Assembly (NCBI RefSeq): GCF_002197845.1
Contig: NZ_NIDE01000014.1
Location: 372,001 to 436,000, forward strand
From: Fimbriiglobus ruber
GTDB lineage: Bacteria; Planctomycetota; Planctomycetia; Gemmatales; Gemmataceae
Direction of reading: 5' to 3'
DNA length: 64,000 nt
Below, in pieces: positions 5,639 to 42,511 of this stretch. Under the pieces are notes generated by a model. The model was not told the DNA's origin. It searched no databases and was given only the letters and a program-made list of their open reading frames with translations. The position numbers and the translations under genes are program-made. How positions within the stretch are numbered: the stretch's first letter is position 1; the number at the start of each line of letters is the position of its first letter.

Positions 5639-12772
<7,134 letters not shown>

Positions 12773-16368: not shown

Positions 16369-17520
16369 CACAAGTCGGCCTTGAGCAACCAGGCCTGGAT
16401 AGCGGAGGATAGATCCTTCACCGATCCGTCTGCGGGAGGGCAAGGATGCGTCCCCAATATTCGTTTCCCGAACCCGTGGTCCAAGCGATCGCGGACGCGC
16501 GCTATCGGCACCCGGACCCGCGTGTCCAAGAGCGGATGGAGATTCTCTGGCTCAAGACCCGGAACGTGACGCACAGTCGGATCGCGGAGTTGGCCAACGT
16601 GTCGCGCTCCACGGTGCAGCGGACCCTGCGGATCTATGCGGCGAAGGGTCTGGATGGGGTCCGATCGTTCGGCTGGAAGGGCCAACCCAGTGCGCTGACA
16701 CCGCATCACGGGACGATCGAAGACGCGTTTCGCCGGCACCCGCCGCACACGGCCCACGAGGCGGCGCGGCGGATCGAGGACCTGACGGGCGTCCGACGCA
16801 AGGCGTCGCGGGTGCGCCAGTTCTTGAAAGAGGATCTGGGGATGAAATGCCTGAAGGTGGCACCCATCCCGGTGCCGCCCAAGAAAACGGTCGACGAACA
16901 CGCCCGCACGCAGGCGGATTTTTTAAAAGACGGAACTGGAACCGAAGTTGGCGGAAGCCCGCGACGGTAAGCGGACGGTGTACTTCGTGGACGCGTCGCA
17001 CTTCGTCTTGGCGTCGTTCCTGGGGTGGGTGTGGTGCTTCGTCCGGTTACATGTCCGGGCCGCGTCGGGACGGCAGAGGTACAACGTGCTGGGTGCGCTG
17101 AACGCGGTCACGCACGAGCTGGTGACAGAAATCAACACGACGTACATCACGGCCACCTCGGTGTGTGCGTTGCTCCGCAAGATCGCGGCCCTCGGTGGGT
17201 CATTGCCGATCACGCTGGTACTCGACAACGCCCGCTACCAGCGGTGCGCGCTGGTGGAGCACACGGCCAAGGCACTCGGGATCGAGTTGTTGTTCCTGCC
17301 GTCGTATTCGCCGAACCTGAACTTGATCGAGCGACTCTGGAAGTTCGTGAAGAAGGAGGCGTTGAACAGCCGCCACCATCAGGACTTCAAGAAGTTCCAG
17401 GAGGCCATCGACCATTGCTTGGCGGATCTGCCGACGAAACACCGAGAGAAACTGGCGACCCTGATGACCCACAAATTCCAGACGTGGGACAATGTGTCAC
17501 TCCTGGACGCGTAAAGTATA
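16345..17520 (+). mobile_element. IS630-family insertion sequence
   Basis: A body of about 1172 bp (16347-17518) is flanked by TA at 16345-16346 and 17519-17520, the standard IS630/Tc1 target duplication. Both ends carry agtgacac exactly 17 nt inside the TA (16364-16371, and inverted at 17494-17501). The rest of the terminal repeats match weakly. The element encodes one transposase split over two frames. It sits in the stop codon of the upstream esterase gene. Confidence 0.85.
16446..17514 (+). CDS. IS630-family transposase, two overlapping frames
   Basis: The first frame (16446-16970) encodes a helix-turn-helix DNA-binding half (IAELANVSRSTVQRTLR). The second, open from 16927 to the stop at 17512-17514, encodes the DDE catalytic half: VYFVDASHFV, LVLDNARYQ and NLIERLWKFVK carry the two aspartates and the glutamate. 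Joining them needs a net +1 shift near the T6A4 run at 16919-16928, giving ADFLK-TELEPKLAEARDGK as in intact relatives. Many IS630-group elements express their transposase by programmed frameshifting at such runs. A simple indel that kills the gene is the alternative. Confidence 0.85.
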
Positions 17521-18012: not shown

Positions 18013-18819
18013 ATGCCGCCCGACCCGCCCGACGAACCGTCCACCGATCCGGTCGAGCCGGATATCGAGTCGTCGCTCGCGCTCAGTCGTGCGGCGGCCG
18101 CACGGCTGGGCCAGATCGAGTGGCAACTCGAAACCGAGCCCGGACTCGAATTTGAACCGGCCCCCAACCCGGCCGCTCCGAGTCCGGCCGCAACGCCAGT
18201 ACCCGACTTGCCTGCGCCCGACGCGCCGGTCCCGAGTCGGCCGACGGCCGAACCCGCGCGGCCGCGGCTGTCATTTTTCCCGAGTCGGACGGCGGAGTCG
18301 GAAGCCCCGCCACCACCGGACCGTATTCTGGAAGCTCTCTTATTCGTCGGCGGCCCGCCCCTGACGCCGGACGCGGTTGCGGTCGCCGTCCGCGGACTGA
18401 CGTCGGACCAGGTTCGCGAAGCCGTCGACCGACTGAACAAGGCGTACCGCGTCCAGAACCGCCCGTACACGATTCAACCACGGGACGGCGGTTACGTGCT
18501 GGTGGTGAAGCCGGCGTATCGGGGTGTGAAAGAGAAGCTGTTCGGCGGCCCGCGGGAGGCCCGACTCGGCCAGCCGGCGCTCGACGTGTTGAGCCTCGTC
18601 GCGTACCGCCAGCCGATCACCAAGGCGGACGTGGACGCGCTGCGGGGGGCGGACTCGGCGACGGTCCTGCGGCAACTCGTGCGGCTCGGCCTGATCGCGG
18701 TCGCCCGCCGCGGCGAGGCCGGCGCCCGCGAGATCTGCTATGGCACCACTTCGCGATTTCTTGACCTGTTCAACCTGTCCGGCCTCGACGACCTGCCCCG
18801 GCTCGTGGACGCGAAGTGA
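18013..18819 (+). CDS. scpB: Segregation and condensation protein B
   Basis: ScpB joins ScpA and SMC in the bacterial condensin that compacts and separates chromosomes. The protein has 268 residues. About the first 100 are a proline- and acid-rich disordered extension. Two winged-helix domains follow: ILEALLFVGGPPLTPDAVAVAV and then PALDVLSLVAYRQPITKADVDALRG with the conserved VLRQLVRLGLI. The C-terminus is FLDLFNLSGLDDLPRL. Its last 51 codons are repeated at 21165-21320 with only synonymous differences. No scpA lies nearby. Confidence 0.9.
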   Translation: MPPDPPDEPSTDPVEPDIESSLALSRAAAARLGQIEWQLETEPGLEFEPAPNPAAPSPAATPVPDLPAPDAPVPSRPTAEPARPRLSFFPSRTAESEAPPPPDRILEALLFVGGPPLTPDAVAVAVRGLTSDQVREAVDRLNKAYRVQNRPYTIQPRDGGYVLVVKPAYRGVKEKLFGGPREARLGQPALDVLSLVAYRQPITKADVDALRGADSATVLRQLVRLGLIAVARRGEAGAREICYGTTSRFLDLFNLSGLDDLPRLVDAK

Positions 18820-18822
18820 CAG
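18667..18822 (+). repeat. Direct repeat, copy 1: 3' end of scpB
   Basis: These 156 bp cover the last 50 codons of scpB, the stop codon and cag. Copy 2 lies at 21165-21320 in the same orientation. The copies differ at five positions (TAT/TAC, CGA/CGG, TTT/TTC, CTT/CTC, CGG/CGA), all synonymous. The flanks differ completely. The repeats bracket the ATPase-HNH module. Confidence 0.95.
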
Positions 18823-18915
18823 GGCTCCGCGAAGGAGAGACACGCGGCCCCCAATCTCCGTCGGTGCCCGTGCCGCGCACGGTCTCGGCCGGCCCAAACC
18901 GTGTGACCGGAGAAC

Positions 18916-18993
18916 ATGAGCGACACTCGCGAATGTAAGATGTCAGGAAGGGCAGACAGCAATGGATCTTGTTTCACGGGTGTGTCGGCGTGA
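18916..18993 (+). CDS. Possible 25-residue leader ORF
   Basis: An ATG at 18916 follows GGAG at 18909 and opens a 25-codon frame (starting MSDTRECK) that ends in TGA at 18991. It lies inside the duplicated scpB bracket and just ahead of the palindrome and the ATPase gene. No family is recognisable. It may be chance, since frames this short are common. Confidence 0.2.
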   Translation: MSDTRECKMSGRADSNGSCFTGVSA

Positions 18994-19005
18994 ACCGAGT
19001 TCGGC

Positions 19006-19021
19006 GACAGGTTAACCTGTC
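19006..19021. promoter_or_regulatory. Perfect 16-bp palindrome, candidate operator
   Basis: The sequence gacaggttaacctgtc is a perfect palindrome ending 11 bp before the ATPase start codon and next to its GGGAG ribosome site. Its position would let a bound repressor block transcription or translation of the ATPase-HNH pair. No regulator gene is present in the module, so the binder would be host-encoded or one of the two proteins. Confidence 0.45.
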
Positions 19022-19032
19022 TGGGAGATGGG

Positions 19033-20286
19033 ATGTACATCCGGCAACTTAGCCTAAACAGAATAAGAACATTCGTTCGCAACACGTTTAAATTCGTGTA
19101 TCCCGACCAGACCTCCGGGCCGGGGGCCAACGGTGCGTCAGTCAACGGGGTCTTGCGACCGCGGCTACCGAATGTGAACCTACTGGTCGGCGAAAACGGT
19201 TCGGGGAAGAGTACCGTACTCCAGGCGATCGCGCTGACGACCCTCGGGCCTGCCGCACAGGACGCGAAATTGCCGGTACGGCCGCTGGCCCGGTTCGACG
19301 AACCGGGCAAACTGAGTTCGCACAAATCGACGATGGAAGCCCAGTTATTGCTACACGAACAAGATGGCACGACCACGGAGATCGAATCGCGCCTTGAGGT
19401 GTGGGGCCGCGGCGAACTTGAAGGGCTGCGATACCGCGGAAAGGACAAGCGGGCCTGGGCTCCCGTTTTCTCGTCCGAAAACGAGGCTTTCTTTTGCGTC
19501 GCCTACGGGGCCACCCGCCGGATCGACGCCGGCGAGAGCGCGGAACGCGGAGCCCCGCCCAAGTCATCCTTTCTGCGTGCCCAACGTATGCAGAGCATCT
19601 TCCAGGATTCTTATTCGCTCTTCCCGCTCCCCTGGTGGTTGCCGAATCTGCAGGCCGGCGAGCCGGATCGCTATTCCCAGGTGATCGACCTGATGAACCA
19701 ACTGCTTAAACCGGCCGAGTACCGTTTTACCGGCGAACGGAAGGGACAGGAGTACCTGTTCGAACGCGGCTCGACCCGCGTGCCGCTGCCGAGCCTGTCC
19801 GACGGCTATCGCGCCTTCATCGCCTGGGTCGCGGACCTGCTCTATCACGTCTGCCACGGATGTCCGCCGGGCAAGTCCCTGGTGGAAAGCCGGGGCGTCG
19901 TCCTCGTCGACGAAATTGATCTGCACTTGCACCCCCGTTGGCAGATGCAAGTCGTCGAGACGGTGGCCAACACATTTCCGCGGATGCAATTCTTTTTTAC
20001 GTCCCACAGCCCGCTCGTCGCGGGGAGCCTCGAGTGGATGAACATTATCGCGCTCAAGAACCAAGAGGGGACGAATCGGACGGCGGTCGAGCGGTTCAAG
20101 CGCAGCATTCATGGGCTCGACGCGGACCAGATTCTGCTGTCCGAGTTCTTCGGCCTGACGACCACGAGAGCACCCGGGAAGGTCCGTCAACTCGAGGAGC
20201 TGAGCCGGCGCGCGCGGCACGGCGACGAGCAGGCCGCCCGCGAGATCATTCTGGCCATGGCCCGGGGGACGGAGGCCGTGCAATGA
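19033..20286 (+). CDS. SMC/RecF-like AAA ATPase of a Septu-like defence pair (PtuA-like)
   Basis: An ABC/SMC-type ATPase of 417 residues. It has Walker A GENGSGKST (53-61), a signature-like LSDGYR (255-260), Walker B VVLVDEIDLHLHP (289-301) and the switch histidine in TSHSP (323-327). The N-terminus YIRQLSLNRIRTF is typical of RecF-like overcoming-lysogenization and Septu ATPases. GGGAG precedes the ATG. The stop overlaps the HNH gene start by 4 bp (ATGA), so the two are translationally coupled. The architecture matches PtuA of Septu and of retron-associated effectors, where the ATPase controls an HNH nuclease during phage attack. A defence role here is inference. No reverse transcriptase or retron RNA was found. 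Confidence 0.8.
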   Translation: MYIRQLSLNRIRTFVRNTFKFVYPDQTSGPGANGASVNGVLRPRLPNVNLLVGENGSGKSTVLQAIALTTLGPAAQDAKLPVRPLARFDEPGKLSSHKSTMEAQLLLHEQDGTTTEIESRLEVWGRGELEGLRYRGKDKRAWAPVFSSENEAFFCVAYGATRRIDAGESAERGAPPKSSFLRAQRMQSIFQDSYSLFPLPWWLPNLQAGEPDRYSQVIDLMNQLLKPAEYRFTGERKGQEYLFERGSTRVPLPSLSDGYRAFIAWVADLLYHVCHGCPPGKSLVESRGVVLVDEIDLHLHPRWQMQVVETVANTFPRMQFFFTSHSPLVAGSLEWMNIIALKNQEGTNRTAVERFKRSIHGLDADQILLSEFFGLTTTRAPGKVRQLEELSRRARHGDEQAAREIILAMARGTEAVQ

Positions 20287-21161
20287 TTCGGGTGGGCATC
20301 GCCCGGAAGGAACTTCGGAGACGGATCAAAGCGATCAAGCAAACTTGGTTTACAAGAGCGAACGCGGCACTGACCGCATTGCCCGCGGTCCCCCGGTCGA
20401 GCGATTTCCCACGGCTCTGGAGCGAGATCAAGGACGTCTATATCGATCTGCAGCATTCCAAGTGTGGCTTCTGCGAAAAGCCGCTCGAAGGCCGGATCGA
20501 GCAGGACGTTGAACACTTCCGGCCCAAAGCAGGCGTGGACCCTTGGGAGCCGCCGCCCGATCTGGTGGCCGCAGGGCTTCCCCTTTCGCAACCGGCCGAC
20601 GGGGGCAAAGAGCCCGGCTACGCGTTCCTCGCGTTCGACCCGCTGAACTATGTCGCCGCCTGCAAGAACTGCAATACGATCTTCAAAGGCAACCTCTTTC
20701 CGATCGCCGGAGCGCGCAAATCCAGGGCGAAGAAACCACCCGCGAACGTCCACGAACTGCCGTACCTGATCTACCCGATAGGTGATCGCGACAAACCCGA
20801 AGACCTGATCAGTTTTTACGGCGCGGTGCCCCGGCCCGCGGTCGCAAGCGGCCACGACCGTTTTCGGGCGCTGGTTACCATCGCCGTTTTCAAATTGGAC
20901 GATCCGGTGGAGCGGCGGGTGTTCTATGAAGGTCGAGCCCGGCAGATCCAGTTACTGTTCCTGAATCTGACGACCCTGGACGACAGCGCGGATGCAGTCC
21001 TGGTAGCCGCGGCCGCGGCCAACGTGAATCGCATGTTGCAAGATCGCGAACCGTTTGCGAACTGCCTACGCTGTTTTCACCGGCTGTATCAGCGGTCGCG
21101 CGCCGAGGCCACGCAAATCTACACGGACCTGACCACGCTTCTGGACACGATTTCACCCTGA
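20283..21161 (+). CDS. HNH endonuclease of a Septu-like defence pair (PtuB-like)
   Basis: A protein of 292 residues with an HNH zinc-finger nuclease. Zinc-pair cysteines C61 and C64 are in CGFCEKPLEG. EHFRPK (residues 77-82) holds the catalytic histidine. The second pair, C127 and C130, with Asn131, lies in CKNCNTIFKGN. This layout is that of the HNH family paired with ATPases in Septu and type I retron effectors. The rest is helical. The ATG overlaps the ATPase stop, and the gene ends 3 bp before the second scpB-like repeat. The target (DNA or RNA) cannot be read from the sequence. Confidence 0.8.
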   Translation: MIRVGIARKELRRRIKAIKQTWFTRANAALTALPAVPRSSDFPRLWSEIKDVYIDLQHSKCGFCEKPLEGRIEQDVEHFRPKAGVDPWEPPPDLVAAGLPLSQPADGGKEPGYAFLAFDPLNYVAACKNCNTIFKGNLFPIAGARKSRAKKPPANVHELPYLIYPIGDRDKPEDLISFYGAVPRPAVASGHDRFRALVTIAVFKLDDPVERRVFYEGRARQIQLLFLNLTTLDDSADAVLVAAAAANVNRMLQDREPFANCLRCFHRLYQRSRAEATQIYTDLTTLLDTISP

Positions 21162-21164
21162 ACA

Positions 21165-21320
21165 CTGCGGCAACTCGTGCGGCTCGGCCTGATCGCGGTC
21201 GCCCGCCGCGGCGAGGCCGGCGCCCGCGAGATCTGCTACGGCACCACTTCGCGGTTCCTCGACCTGTTCAACCTGTCCGGCCTCGACGACCTGCCCCGAC
21301 TCGTGGACGCGAAGTGACAG
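21165..21320 (+). pseudogene. scpB: Direct repeat, copy 2: orphan scpB 3' end
   Basis: This is a second copy of the last 50 codons, stop and three following bases of scpB, without any start codon. It is 151/156 identical to copy 1 and encodes the identical peptide from LRQLVRLGLI to PRLVDAK. It is either the original end of scpB displaced by an incoming element, or a remnant from an earlier event. Confidence 0.9.
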
Positions 21321-21431
21321 ATCCTGGTTCGACACTTACGCGCATAAAATGACGTGCGCAGGCTGTTTTTCGCCGACACCTCTTGTCGGACATGTATCCG
21401 CTCTACCCACTCCCTTGTTCGGCGAGATGCG

Positions 21432-21779
21432 ATGGACGCGAAGACCCGCCGACAGTTGCTTCGGGAATCCGACTTCGGTCGCCAGTTCGGCTGGGCGGTC
21501 GAGTGGAACGGCCGCGTAATCGCGCGGCTAGAAGACCCCGTGTGGGATTCGGACTCTCAGTTCTGGCACAGCTACGAATTGGTTCCCGCGACCGACGAGC
21601 CCGCCGAGCGTGCGTCGCTGTTCGACCCGGAGTTTTGGGAAACACACCTGGAGGAGTTGACGTACCGTAATCTGCGGTTGGGTGAAGTCGCGACATTTGC
21701 CTTCCCCGGCATTCGAATCTTCGATAAGCAAGGCCGGGTGAGGATGCGCGGGCTGTATCTAACGGAGGATGACAAGTAG
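21432..21779 (+). CDS. Hypothetical protein
   Basis: A protein of 115 residues starting MDAKTRRQLLRESDFGRQFGWAVEW. It has a mixed strand/helix pattern and repeated aromatic residues (FWHSYEL, FWETHLEEL), and ends in LYLTEDDK. I do not recognise a family. It lies between the displaced scpB end and a decayed ATPase fragment, so it could be cargo of the same hotspot. The ATG at 21432 is preferred to the longer frame from 21354, whose first residues look non-coding. Confidence 0.5.
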   Translation: MDAKTRRQLLRESDFGRQFGWAVEWNGRVIARLEDPVWDSDSQFWHSYELVPATDEPAERASLFDPEFWETHLEELTYRNLRLGEVATFAFPGIRIFDKQGRVRMRGLYLTEDDK

Positions 21780-21944
21780 CGGCGAACCGTCGGTGTTTCT
21801 CGCCCGGGGAGGCGGTACCGACCGAAGTCGCAGGAGCGGGGACGCCGAACAAGGTTAACATGTGAACGTTGCAGCAGACCCCAGCACGTGGTGGCTCCAC
21901 AGGGGGGGAGTGGTCCGAGCGGCGGGGCTGCTGAGCTTGGGCGT

Positions 21945-22028
21945 TGGCTGTCGAATCTGCGGATCGGCGAGCCGGATCGCTATTCTTGGGTAATCGACCT
22001 GATGAACCCATTGCTCGGACCGGCCGAT
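21945..22028 (+). pseudogene. Fragment of a second PtuA-like ATPase
   Basis: These 84 bp encode WLSNLRIGEPDRYSWVIDLM and eight more residues. They match residues 202-229 of the ATPase at 19033-20286 with 21 of 28 residues and 69 of 84 bases identical by hand count. No flanking homology is visible. A diverged relative of the same ATPase therefore once stood here. Confidence 0.8.
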
Positions 22029-22030
22029 CC

Positions 22031-22149
22031 TAAAACGGGGATTTCAGCGCAATAAATGCAAAAAATGCTTCACGCCGGCCAAGGCTCGGCAGTCGCGAGA
22101 CGCGCCCGTCCCAAAACGGGGGTTTCAGCGCAATAAATGCAAAAAATGC
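22031..22149 (+). repeat. Pair of 38-bp direct repeats 81 bp apart
   Basis: Copies at 22031-22068 and 22112-22149 differ at a couple of bases. In one frame each reads KRGFQRNKCKKC, like half of a transposase zinc ribbon, with 43 bp between. With the ATPase fragment just upstream and no gene here, the 21780-22171 gap looks like decayed mobile DNA. Two copies are too few to call a CRISPR. Confidence 0.6.
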
Positions 22150-22171
22150 GTACCCACCTCACCAGCAATAC

Positions 22172-24346
22172 CTACCGCGCCTTGAGAGCGGCTTCAAACG
22201 ACACGTCGAACGCCTTCAATTGCGGCAGGCGGGAAATCTCGGTGGCCGCCGTGCGGACGTCGGCCTCGCTGCCGGCGGAGAGGTTGATGGTCATCGACCC
22301 CGTGCCGGTCCGCTTGATATCGGTTACGATCGCCCACCCGTAACTCGCGTTCCGGATCAGGGCATCGATCGCCATCGTGCTGGTTTGCACCGGGGCCGCG
22401 GGCTCGCGGGCGGCGAGGTTGAACCGCAGCGGCGGCACTTGCATCGGGGCCGGATCCGGAGCCGGGGGGCGGGCGGCAATCGTGACCGGGGCACTCGTCG
22501 GGGCCGCAGCGGGAACGGACGCGGCGACGGTCACGACCGTGGCCGCGGCCGGTTCGGTGCGGGCAACCGGGGCGATCGCATTGGCGGGCATGACCGGAGT
22601 GGCGGGCGTGACCGGAGTGGCGGTGGATGCGATGGCGGGCGTGACCGCGGCGAACGCCAGGTTCTGGTTGTCGGCCGCGGTGTCCTTCGACGTCGGCGCG
22701 GCGGGCGACTTCCAAACGGGGTCGGGCACCGCGGCCGGCGGGCGGCCGGGAATCACTTGAATCTTCGGGGTCGCGCCCGGCCCCGGGATAAGCTCCACCG
22801 TGGGCTTCGACCGCGGGGCCGCCGGCGCAGAAGGCGTGGCCGCCGGGGCGGGAGTCACCGACGGCGTGGGCGGAACGACCGAGGCAGATGGCGGGGCGGG
22901 CGGCTTCAACGATACGGGCTTAAACGAGAGCGGTTGCTCGCCCGTGACTGGGACCGCAGCAGACGGAGTCCACGGAGCCAGTGCCGGAGGCGTCGCCTTT
23001 GGGGTGGCCGGAACGGGTGCCGGCGGTGCCGATACCTGCTCCTTCGCCGCGGGCTTCGGAGCGGGCGGTGTCAGCGCGCTTTCTACCGGGGTGGCCGTCG
23101 GCTTCGACGCCACGGGTGTAAACGTCAGTGCCTCGTCGCCAGAGACCTTGGCCGAGTTCCACGTCGGGCTCGCCGGAGGCGTTTGGGCCGCCGGTGTGGG
23201 CGGGGTGGCGGCCGGTTGTCCGGCGGCCGCGGGGGTCATGGTCAGCGTCGGCGGCTTGGCGGGTGTCGTCGTGGCTGCCGGGGACGGTTTGGCCGGCGCG
23301 ACGGCGAGAGGTTGCGGGTCGAACGTCTGGGTGACCGGCGGCGAGAACGTCGACACGAACGGCGACGCCGGCGCGGGTGGAGGTTCGGCCAGCCGCGAGG
23401 ACATCGGTCCGTTCGGAGCCGGACGCGGCTCGGGTTTGGCCGCGGGCGTTACCGGCGTCGGGGCCGAGAGCAGAGTCGGCGTCGGGACCGAGAGTAGAGT
23501 CGACGTCGGGGCCGGGAGCAGCGTTGACGTCGGAGCCGGTGCGGGTGACGAAGGCGCGGGTACCGGCTTGGGGGCGGGCGGCGGCTCGGGCGCGGTGCCC
23601 CGGGTGAGGAGCGGGCGAACGATCGGTTCCGGAGTCGGCTGCGGGCCGACGTACGCAGGCGGCTCGGCCCCCGCGGCCATCCGGGCCGGTGTCGCCGCCA
23701 TTACCGGGAACGCGCCGGGCGTTGCCCCGGTCTGGGCGTACCAGTTGGCCGACCCGCGGGGGTGCTGCCCGCTCGGGGCGTGCGGGTTCGACCCCGGCGT
23801 CGTCGTCCCCCACCCGTACCACCGGTACGCCGGCGGACTCGCCGACACGCCCGGCGAACTGACGGGGGCGTTCGAGTACTCCATCGCCGGCGGGTCGACG
23901 TAAGCGGGGGCGGTCCGGCCCTGAGATGGGGCGGATGACCGGCCGCTGAACAAGCCTTTCATCCCGTCCCACGTGTTCGACAGGAACGACGGCTTGCCGG
24001 CCGACGGCTCGACGATCGCGGCTGTTCGCACCGGCGCGGGTTGCCCCCCGAACGTCCCGTTAGCGGGTTGTGCGGCGGCGGCGTTCGGGTCGTAGGTCGA
24101 TTGCGGCGACGGGACCACCACGCCGGCCTGCCGCGCGTCGTAGGTCGTGCTGTAGTCCGGGGCCGCCCCCCGCGCGAGCGCGGTGATGACCGCCGGGTCG
24201 AACGGCCGCGGCCCTTTCAGTTGGGCGGCCGGCTGCTGGGCGACCGCGGGCGCGATTCCGGAAAGAACGAACAGACCGACCGTCCCGATCACCCGGGACC
24301 GGGTGCCGGGGCGTCGGCGGCGCGTCGCGGCGGGGTGTGTTTGCAC
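22172..24346 (-). CDS. Exported proline/alanine-rich low-complexity protein
   Basis: A protein of 724 residues from a GTG at 24346 with AAGGA upstream. An N-terminal signal peptide (VGLFVLSGIAPAVAQQ) follows a run of arginines. Most of the length is disordered, rich in Pro, Ala, Thr and Val. The last 70 residues are folded: STMAIDALIRNASYGWAIVTDIKR...AATEISRLPQLKAFDVSFEA, which looks like a small alpha-beta domain similar in pattern to BON domains. I do not recognise a function. It follows the glycine-rich and polysaccharide-export genes on the same strand, suggesting an envelope role. Confidence 0.6.
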   Translation of the reverse strand: MQTHPAATRRRRPGTRSRVIGTVGLFVLSGIAPAVAQQPAAQLKGPRPFDPAVITALARGAAPDYSTTYDARQAGVVVPSPQSTYDPNAAAAQPANGTFGGQPAPVRTAAIVEPSAGKPSFLSNTWDGMKGLFSGRSSAPSQGRTAPAYVDPPAMEYSNAPVSSPGVSASPPAYRWYGWGTTTPGSNPHAPSGQHPRGSANWYAQTGATPGAFPVMAATPARMAAGAEPPAYVGPQPTPEPIVRPLLTRGTAPEPPPAPKPVPAPSSPAPAPTSTLLPAPTSTLLSVPTPTLLSAPTPVTPAAKPEPRPAPNGPMSSRLAEPPPAPASPFVSTFSPPVTQTFDPQPLAVAPAKPSPAATTTPAKPPTLTMTPAAAGQPAATPPTPAAQTPPASPTWNSAKVSGDEALTFTPVASKPTATPVESALTPPAPKPAAKEQVSAPPAPVPATPKATPPALAPWTPSAAVPVTGEQPLSFKPVSLKPPAPPSASVVPPTPSVTPAPAATPSAPAAPRSKPTVELIPGPGATPKIQVIPGRPPAAVPDPVWKSPAAPTSKDTAADNQNLAFAAVTPAIASTATPVTPATPVMPANAIAPVARTEPAAATVVTVAASVPAAAPTSAPVTIAARPPAPDPAPMQVPPLRFNLAAREPAAPVQTSTMAIDALIRNASYGWAIVTDIKRTGTGSMTINLSAGSEADVRTAATEISRLPQLKAFDVSFEAALKAR

Positions 24347-41209: not shown

Positions 41210-42511
41210 TCAGTCCTTTTTCAGTGAGTTGAAGACCATGCCGGTGAGGATCTTCGGGTAGAAGTACGTCGACTTCGGCGGCATCTTCTCGCGGGCGCCG
41301 GCGATCGTTTCGACGTGGTCCATGCCCACCGGCGGGACGAGGGCCGCGATCTGGCACTGCTTCGCCGCGGTCGCGTCGGTCACTTCCTTCATGAGGTGGA
41401 CGTACTGGCACGCGGGTGTGCCACCGATCTTCTCGGGCACCAACCGCTCCAGCACCAGTTTGTGCAGGATGCTGACGCCCAGGCCGCGCCAGGCTTTCGT
41501 CTGGTCCGGGGCGAGGCCGTCCATCACGGCCGGGTCGCGCAGCTTGGCCGCGAACCACTCGTTGTCGGCCACCGTGCCGAACCCGAGGACGTCCTGCGAG
41601 CCTTCGATTTCGACGTGCTCCCAACACGCCGCGGCGTCGTTGCCGAACGCGCCGACGATGTCGAAGTGGTCGGCGAGGGCGGCCTTGAGTTGTTGGCCGG
41701 TGACGGCGGGGAGCGCGCTGACGAGCCGGTGGGTCGGGAGGATGAGTAGGCCGGGGTCGCTCATGCTGACGAGCATCATCATGCAGAAGTTCTGGGCCGC
41801 CTCGTCGTCCTGCACGTTCCCGGCTGCCTTCTGCTCTTCCAGATATTTCAGGCCGGTCTCGTACCGGTGGTGGCCATCGGCGATGAACACCGGCTTCGGC
41901 CCCATCAGGCCGATGATGGCCGAGACGGTCGCGCTGTCCGTGATCACCCAGAGCCGGTTGACGACGCCGAGGTGGTCGGTGGCCTCGACCGGCGGGGACT
42001 TGCGGAGGAACAGTTCGAGTTTCGCGTAGACCTCGTTCTCGGCGTCCGGGTAGAGGCCGAAGACGGGCGAGATGTTGAACCCGGTGGCCTGGTAGAGTTT
42101 GAGGCGGTCGGCCTTGGGGCCGGAGAGGGTTTGTTCGTGCGGGTAGATGCGGCCGGTGCCGAACGGTTCGAGCCGCACCCGGGCGAGGAACCCGCGGCGG
42201 GTGTGCGTCACCCCCTCGACCACGAACTCCTGCTCGTAGACGTACAGCGACCGGGCCGTGTCCTGCCGGAGGGCGCCTTCGCTGGTCCAGCCGTTGAGGG
42301 TCCGGGCGGCCTGGGTGTACTTGTCGTCGCCGTGGGCGCCGGGGCTGTCCTTGGTCAGTTCGATGCGGATCGCGTTGTACGGGCTGGCGTCGTACAGTTT
42401 CTGCTGGAGCGCGGCGTCAACCACGTCGTAAGGCGGCGCGACCACGCCGGACAGCGGCCCCACCTGGCCCAGGTCGTAACGGAACCCGCGGAACGCCCGA
42501 ATGTCGGCCAT
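41210..42511 (-). CDS. DUF1015 family protein
   Basis: A protein of 433 residues with the DUF1015 landmarks: FRGFRYDLGQVGPLSGVVAPPYDVV at the start, NAIRIEL, IYPHEQTLSGPKADRLKL, the highly conserved FIADGHHRYETGL and a C-terminal MPPKSTYFYPKILTGMV. Members are often near serine-pathway genes and appear to be small-molecule enzymes of unknown reaction. It stands alone here. The start is ATG 42511. Confidence 0.88.
   Translation of the reverse strand: MADIRAFRGFRYDLGQVGPLSGVVAPPYDVVDAALQQKLYDASPYNAIRIELTKDSPGAHGDDKYTQAARTLNGWTSEGALRQDTARSLYVYEQEFVVEGVTHTRRGFLARVRLEPFGTGRIYPHEQTLSGPKADRLKLYQATGFNISPVFGLYPDAENEVYAKLELFLRKSPPVEATDHLGVVNRLWVITDSATVSAIIGLMGPKPVFIADGHHRYETGLKYLEEQKAAGNVQDDEAAQNFCMMMLVSMSDPGLLILPTHRLVSALPAVTGQQLKAALADHFDIVGAFGNDAAACWEHVEIEGSQDVLGFGTVADNEWFAAKLRDPAVMDGLAPDQTKAWRGLGVSILHKLVLERLVPEKIGGTPACQYVHLMKEVTDATAAKQCQIAALVPPVGMDHVETIAGAREKMPPKSTYFYPKILTGMVFNSLKKD

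What the first reader, a model, noticed from the sequence alone, without database searches (positions are those of the whole stretch)
21945..22028. Scrap of a second related ATPase beside the module
An 84-bp segment matches codons 202-229 of the intact PtuA-like gene with 69 of 84 bases identical, on the other side of the displaced scpB end. It shows that a diverged relative of this system previously occupied the locus, which fits a turnover hotspot.
Basis: seen in the sequence. Interest (0 to 1): 0.6.

Follow-up and report, generated by a model that had tools for sequence, protein, structure and literature searches.

The report
Defence-gene scrap beside an integron cassette
A short, decayed piece of a second copy of a bacterial anti-phage defence gene lies next to the working copy; its left end falls at the cut point of an integron recombination site, so a gene-shuffling enzyme may have removed the rest of the older copy, an ordinary kind of relic with an unusually clear left edge.

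Summary
Window 21945-22027 matches ptuA codons 202-229 at 69 of 83 bases without gaps (score 55; best of 500 shuffles 18). No other ptuA, ptuB or scpB remnant was found in 21321-22171. Just left of it is an integron attC site (21850-21949; 69.5 bits with a model built without it), the tail of a lone gene cassette (about 21328-21943). The ptuA match begins within two bases of the attC cut point G^TT. On the right it runs into a shortened copy of a repeat found at 39 or more other places in the genome, through about 10 bases shared by both. The genome has an intact integron integrase gene. Best reading: an older, close ptuA copy lost its 5' part by off-target integron recombination and its 3' part by a deletion into the repeat. 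Its differences fall 6/5/3 over codon positions and hit a conserved proline, which fits decay. The scpB repeat around the intact module differs only synonymously (5 of 156), so the module probably came later. "Turnover hotspot" was not demonstrated.

The parts
18013..18819 (+). scpB (268 aa), intact; its last 50 codons are repeated at 21165
   Evidence: Pfam SMC_ScpB 142.8 bits; repeat D1
18667..18822 (+). first copy of the 156-nt scpB end repeat
   Evidence: 151 of 156 identical to 21165-21320, all 5 differences synonymous third positions
19033..20286 (+). intact ptuA (Septu-type ATPase, 417 aa)
   Evidence: PADLOC PtuA1 415 bits, Pfam AAA_21 81.6 bits
20283..21161 (+). intact ptuB (292 aa)
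   Evidence: PADLOC PtuB1 213 bits; no Pfam match
21165..21320 (+). second, displaced copy of the scpB end
21328..21943 (+). solitary integron gene cassette: left boundary G^TTCGAC (inferred), ORF, attC
   Evidence: left boundary from the motif only; GTTCGRC occurs 41 times on this strand of the window, about once per 1.6 kb; right boundary from the attC alignment
21354..21779 (+). cassette ORF (141 aa from GTG; 115 aa from ATG 21432), no family match
   Evidence: homologues in 2 of 40 other genomes searched
21850..21949 (+). attC site, cut point G^TT between 21943 and 21944
   Evidence: 69.5 bits, E 2.4e-14 genome-wide with model R1 built without it; compared with 26 other sites
21945..22027 (+). 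ptuA remnant, homologous to codons 202-229; 22018-22027 shared with the repeat
22028..22149 (+). shortened copy of an interspersed repeat
   Evidence: 43 matches at E <= 0.01 making 40 places, the window's included (a lower bound: 40 of 77 candidates scored); 7 other copies aligned with it

Best explanation
The segment is a relic of an older ptuA copy, closely related to the ptuA of the intact module. Its left edge is an integron joint: the integron integrase recombined the attC site of a lone cassette with a GTT-like triplet at codon 201/202 of the older ptuA, which removed codons 1-201. The likeliest route is a cassette inserted at a G^TT just behind scpB, followed by an attC-to-ptuA deletion. 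The right edge is a separate joint, a deletion into a genomic repeat through about 10 bases of shared sequence. The stub then decayed. Later an intact ptuAB module was inserted into scpB together with a replacement scpB end. Shown: homology, attC, integrase gene, abutment at the cut point, repeat. Inferred: that the integrase made the joint, the deletion route, the older copy's place beside scpB, and the order of events.
For: Homology far beyond chance. attC found by a model that excluded it; the genome has an intact integron integrase gene (447 bits, cut-off 265, C14:1281594-1282535; 14 control genomes had matches but none over the cut-off) beside an attC array. In 24 of 26 other attC sites the bases after the cut triplet are CGG or CGA, as at the start of a next cassette (22 of these 24 with the triplet GTT intact); in the window they are the ptuA match. 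In 22 sites looked at, some the same, 21 continue with CG. The match starts two bases after the cut. The right edge meets a repeat, and about 65 upstream bases shared by four of seven other copies are missing here. Differences 6/5/3 by codon position, 13 of 14 transitions; dN 0.175, dS 0.307. At the 7 changed residues the homologues agree more often with the intact gene at 5, with the stub at 1, tied at 1. The scpB copies differ at 5 of 156 bases, all synonymous, the ptuA copies at 14 of 83 (Fisher p 6e-4; scpB dN 0, dS 0.124). A passage of PMC10127599 gives 5'-GNT-3' as the minimal motif of IntI1 and describes off-target inversions with integrase-type joints.
Against: In that same paper (passages) the large deletions with one end in an attC site arose with and without the integrase and showed no integrase motif, so an attC-bounded deletion need not be the integrase's work; their break lay in the variable tip of the hairpin, however, not at the cut triplet. 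No 5' part of the older ptuA is left of the cassette, so a second step must be assumed. None of the 13 aligned ptuA genes has GTT at codon 201/202; the window's has GGT. The left cassette boundary rests on a 7-base motif. The bottom-strand hairpin is only moderately better than shuffles (z -1.88), a shorter stretch is not (z -0.97), and the top strand folds at least as well. dN/dS 0.57 on 28 codons is not firmly neutral, the stretch is variable among homologues, and residue G226 agrees with 5 of 12. No ancestral site was found: two same-genus genomes match only in scpB.
Confidence: 0.5

Rival explanations
1. The stub and cassette were joined elsewhere and came to this place together (in foreign DNA, or by an off-target inversion or fusion), so the older ptuA never stood next to scpB.
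For: Off-target integron events include inversions (PMC10127599, passages); nothing ptuA-like besides this stub remains in 21321-22171.
Against: The stub lies on the same strand and the same side of scpB as the present module; no second copy of stub plus cassette end turned up in the genome (which scored 40 of 72 and 15 of 57 candidates).
Confidence: 0.2
2. A deletion ended at the attC hairpin without the integrase (slippage or breakage at the hairpin), and the G^TT abutment only reflects the base of the hairpin.
For: attC-ended deletions without integrase are described in PMC10127599 (passages).
Against: Those ended in the tip of the attC, here the whole site is kept and the joint is at the cut triplet.
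Confidence: 0.15
3. The stub comes from a functional but diverged ptuA relative, with the attC abutment a coincidence of a random deletion end.
For: dS 0.31 leaves room for divergence before truncation; the region is variable among homologues.
Against: Break within two bases of the attC cut point; changes not biased to third positions; loss of a proline kept in 11 of 11 homologues.
Confidence: 0.1
4. The stub is the rest of a tandem duplication of the present module (scpB end plus ptuAB), later gutted.
For: The 156-nt scpB repeat lies between module and stub, as a tandem duplication would leave it.
Against: One event would give both parts the same age, but the scpB copies differ at 5 of 156 bases, all synonymous, and the ptuA copies at 14 of 83, 9 or more of them changing residues (Fisher p 6e-4).
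Confidence: 0.05
5. Chance similarity.
For: Short segment.
Against: Score 55 against at most 18 in 500 shuffles; E 3.9e-18.
Confidence: 0.001

Closest known systems
Septu (PtuA/PtuB) defence system
   Same: The intact neighbour scores as PtuA1 and PtuB1 in PADLOC, and the stub is homologous to that PtuA.
   Different: The stub covers 28 of 417 codons, lacks the P-loop region (residues 48-68 by the Pfam matches) and a partner gene, and cannot work as a defence gene.
Integron gene cassettes inserted off-target (secondary or attG sites; Loot et al. 2024, seen only as a reference entry)
   Same: A solitary cassette with attC away from any array, ending at G^TT against non-cassette DNA.
   Different: The DNA on the two sides does not belong together (scpB end on one side, ptuA stub on the other), so a deletion or other joint is needed besides plain insertion.
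Off-target integron rearrangements in a plasmid (PMC10127599, passages read)
   Same: Gene-breaking rearrangement joints at integron-type triplets.
   Different: Those were inversions in a laboratory selection on plasmid R388, and its deletions were not ascribed to the integrase; this is a chromosomal relic.

Membership tests
ptuA pseudogene | Sequence homology to PtuA beyond chance | tested here: met
ptuA pseudogene | Most of the gene is gone | tested here: met
   28 of 417 codons remain; no other ptuA or ptuB piece found in 21321-22171
ptuA pseudogene | Drift without coding constraint | tested here: inconclusive
   6/5/3 by codon position and dN/dS 0.57 on 28 codons; points to decay, too short for proof
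integron attC site | Fits a model of the genome's own attC sites, cut triplet at the end | tested here: met
   69.5 bits with model R1 that excluded it
integron attC site | Integron integrase gene present in the genome | tested here: met
   TIGR02249 447 bits, cut-off 265
integron attC site | Bottom strand folds into the recombinogenic hairpin | tested here: inconclusive
   -20.5 kcal/mol, z -1.88, 10 of 200 shuffles fold as well; top strand -24.0, z -1.85; shorter bottom stretch z -0.97
integron attC site | Recombination by the integrase | not testable with these tools
   needs an assay
off-target cassette insertion | The two flanks of the cassette join into one interrupted sequence | tested here: not met
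   left flank is the scpB end, right flank a ptuA stub
defence turnover hotspot | Different defence or mobile genes at the same place in relatives | tested here: inconclusive
   29 relatives' scpB loci: no homologue of the window's neighbours, 4 pairs share an ORF; their genes were not classified

The most novel reading that the evidence does not exclude
An integron integrase, acting off-target from a lone chromosomal cassette, deleted an anti-phage system next to scpB, and the same place was later refilled with a near relative of that system carrying its own scpB end: loss and regain of Septu at one address, with integron activity as the agent of loss.
Probability: 0.3. Interest if true: 0.5.

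Novelty: new member of a known kind. Interest (0 to 1): 0.3.

Why it matters
Defence genes come and go quickly, but what removes them is seldom visible afterwards. Here the broken edge of an old defence gene coincides with an integron cut point, which gives one natural, checkable candidate case of integron recombination removing chromosomal DNA outside a cassette array, and a relative order: old copy lost, new copy gained.

Tried and rejected
Chance match: rejected by shuffles. Further buried fragments in 21321-22171: searched with 13 PtuA, 10 PtuB and 1 ScpB protein at permissive settings; matches that do not rest on the stub had E 0.02 or weaker on this short subject. Over the rest of the window with the module masked, the best PtuA or PtuB match away from the stub had E 0.016 (PtuB at 11545-11694); ScpB matches down to E 2e-5 lie in proline- and alanine-rich stretches and were taken as compositional. 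Single tandem duplication: disfavoured by unequal divergence. Plain insertion of the cassette into ptuA: the left flank is not ptuA. A ptuA inside an integron array: of the 11 own-genome ptuA-like matches, the 9 outside this locus lie more than 15 kb from every attC match.

Closer relatives of the stub: genome contigs gave 11 loci, best 52% identity to the window PtuA (which searched six exact peptide patterns and can miss relatives); viral contigs none; plasmids 100 records and phages 7 records, all under 60%; the stub's DNA gave only short matches of E 9e-4 or weaker in 17 of 58 other genomes (with at most 15 candidates scored per genome). Rfam: no match in 18600-22400 at E <= 0.1. The cassette protein as a cassette elsewhere: two homologues, no attC seen behind them by eye. 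A direct repeat around the second ptuAB on contig C7: none of 24 bases or more in the 10 kb looked at.

Rows dropped before counts: one search used 33 of the 39 matches (the other six are the intact ptuA, three copies of the repeat and two short ones) and had no locus for 6 of these 33, which left the window and 26 other sites. One search looked at 22 of the 65 matches; one search scored 150 of 11055 candidates, and one of the 65 is the reverse strand of another. One search aligned 7 other repeat copies, those held as loci at full length. Two of the 12 PtuA homologues (L118, L119) are identical in the stretch compared and are not independent.

Full report
Window 21945-22027 aligns without gaps to 19636-19718, codons 202-229 of the intact ptuA, at 69 of 83 bases. 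The spacer's local score against the gene is 55, while 500 dinucleotide-preserving shuffles reached at most 18. In the 12.36-Mb own genome the segment matches only itself and the intact gene (E 3.9e-18; 15 of 57 candidates scored).

The left edge is the main new result. A blastn of 21880-22040 against the own genome showed that the 60 bases before the stub recur in clusters on several contigs. These are integron attC sites. The genome carries an integron integrase gene in an open frame of 363 codons, 447 bits against a cut-off of 265, beside one of the clusters, and one matched in two separate pieces beside another; 14 control genomes gave matches, none over the cut-off. Nineteen sites without the window's were aligned and modelled. 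The model gives 65 matches at E <= 0.01 in the genome (150 of 11055 candidates scored); the window's site has 69.5 bits, E 2.4e-14. In the window the next best match has 16.7 bits. The site ends with the usual triplet GTT. In 24 of 26 other sites examined the next bases are CGG or CGA, as at the start of a next cassette; in 22 sites, partly the same, 21 continue with CG. In the window they are the ptuA match. [quoted passage not shown] the match begins at 21945.

Left of the attC site lies an ORF of 141 codons (21354-21779) without family match, and before it the bases GTTCGAC, close behind the stop codon of the displaced scpB end. This fits the start of a cassette, but the motif GTTCGRC occurs about once in 1.6 kb on this strand of the window, so the left boundary is likely, not proven. 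The cassette is solitary: the next attC matches on this contig are about 200 kb away, a weak candidate at 41456-41556 (E 0.041 in the window) aside. The predicted hairpin is moderate: bottom strand -20.5 kcal/mol, z -1.88; the top strand folds at least as well (-24.0, z -1.85), and a shorter bottom stretch has z -0.97.

The right edge is different. From 22028 to 22149 lies a repeat found at 40 places of the genome, this one included, which is a lower bound. Several copies match from 22018 on. Six of the seven other copies aligned carry GACCCGCCGG or a close variant just before the repeat core, where the window has GACCGGCCGA. So the last ten bases of the ptuA match are shared with the repeat. 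Four of the seven other copies share about 65 further bases upstream, which are missing here. This looks like a deletion joint through short shared sequence, not a clean insertion of the repeat.

Where did the stub come from? It agrees with the window PtuA at 21 of 28 residues, while 12 other homologues, of 43-53% overall identity, agree with the window PtuA at 8-16 and with the stub at 6-11. It is therefore from a close copy. The 14 differences fall on codon positions 6/5/3 and 13 are transitions; dN is 0.175 and dS 0.307. Of the seven changed residues one replaces a proline kept in 11 of 11 homologues; the homologues side more often with the intact gene at five, with the stub at one (G226, 5 of 12), and are tied at one. 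This favours decay after truncation, though 28 codons cannot prove it.

Relative age. The two scpB end copies differ at 5 of 156 bases, all synonymous third positions. I infer that both were under selection until recently, hence a recent insertion with a scpB end from a related strain. The stub's 14 of 83 is significantly more (Fisher p 6e-4). This speaks against one tandem duplication and for an older stub. The comparison assumes similar mutation rates and cannot separate divergence of the older ptuA before truncation.

Mechanism, with its gaps. Cassette insertion into ptuA alone would leave the 5' part of ptuA left of the cassette; it is not there. The simplest completion is two integron steps: insertion of the cassette at a G^TT behind scpB, then recombination of its attC with a GTT-like site in ptuA, deleting what lay between. 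Off-target activity of integron integrases is known: PMC10127599 reports inversions with integrase-type joints (passages), and PMC12901181 mentions attG sites as genomic targets (passages). Against me, the attC-ended deletions of PMC10127599 occurred with and without the integrase and lacked its motif; their break lay in the tip of the hairpin, not at the cut triplet. None of the 13 aligned ptuA genes has GTT at this place, the window's has GGT, so the target is inferred. That the older ptuA stood beside scpB is likely from strand and position but not shown. For these reasons I put the whole reading at 0.5.

Hotspot. In 29 scpB loci of relatives no homologue of the window's neighbours lies downstream, and 4 pairs of loci share some downstream ORF. 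Two loci had under 50 bases there, and the ORFs were not classified, so this neither supports nor refutes a hotspot. Two same-genus genomes match this region only in scpB.

Context. Integrons in planctomycetes are known: PMC8352920 built an attC model for that phylum (one passage). Paper searches for Septu, PtuA and integron (5 papers listed), for integron cassettes and anti-phage defence (5 listed), and for Gemmata, Fimbriiglobus and integron (10 of 57 listed) showed no title on this locus; only listings were seen, and the library holds a part of the literature. The genus names are a guess recalled from genome size and kind, not a result.

Verdict. A true relic of a second ptuA, with one edge at an attC cut point. 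It is an ordinary kind of remnant in an instructive setting.

Noticed in passing
22028-22149: A 122-base unit with two direct 41-base repeats belongs to an interspersed repeat family found at 39 or more other places in this genome; its nature is unknown.
   Followed up: partly
L155 (G000:C7:209651-213493): A second ptuA-ptuB pair in the same genome (PtuA about 50%, PtuB 46% identical) stands directly behind a gene that weakly matches tyrosine recombinases (TIGR02249, 22 bits; ORFs).
   Followed up: partly
18667-18822 and 21165-21320: The module is flanked by a 156-base repeat of the scpB end with only synonymous differences, as if an element carried its own replacement gene end.
   Followed up: partly
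G000:C18:75245-77827 (L022, L023): A second integron integrase matches in two pieces about 1.6 kb apart (model positions 1-213 and 207-314), so it seems interrupted.
   Followed up: no
16446-17514: A transposase with HTH and DDE_3 domains (IS630-like by recall) is split over two overlapping reading frames upstream of scpB.
   Followed up: no
seven attC sites, e.g. C2:937955 and C14:1274499: These sites share an almost identical stretch of about 45 bases before the attC core in place of the usual left end.
   Followed up: no
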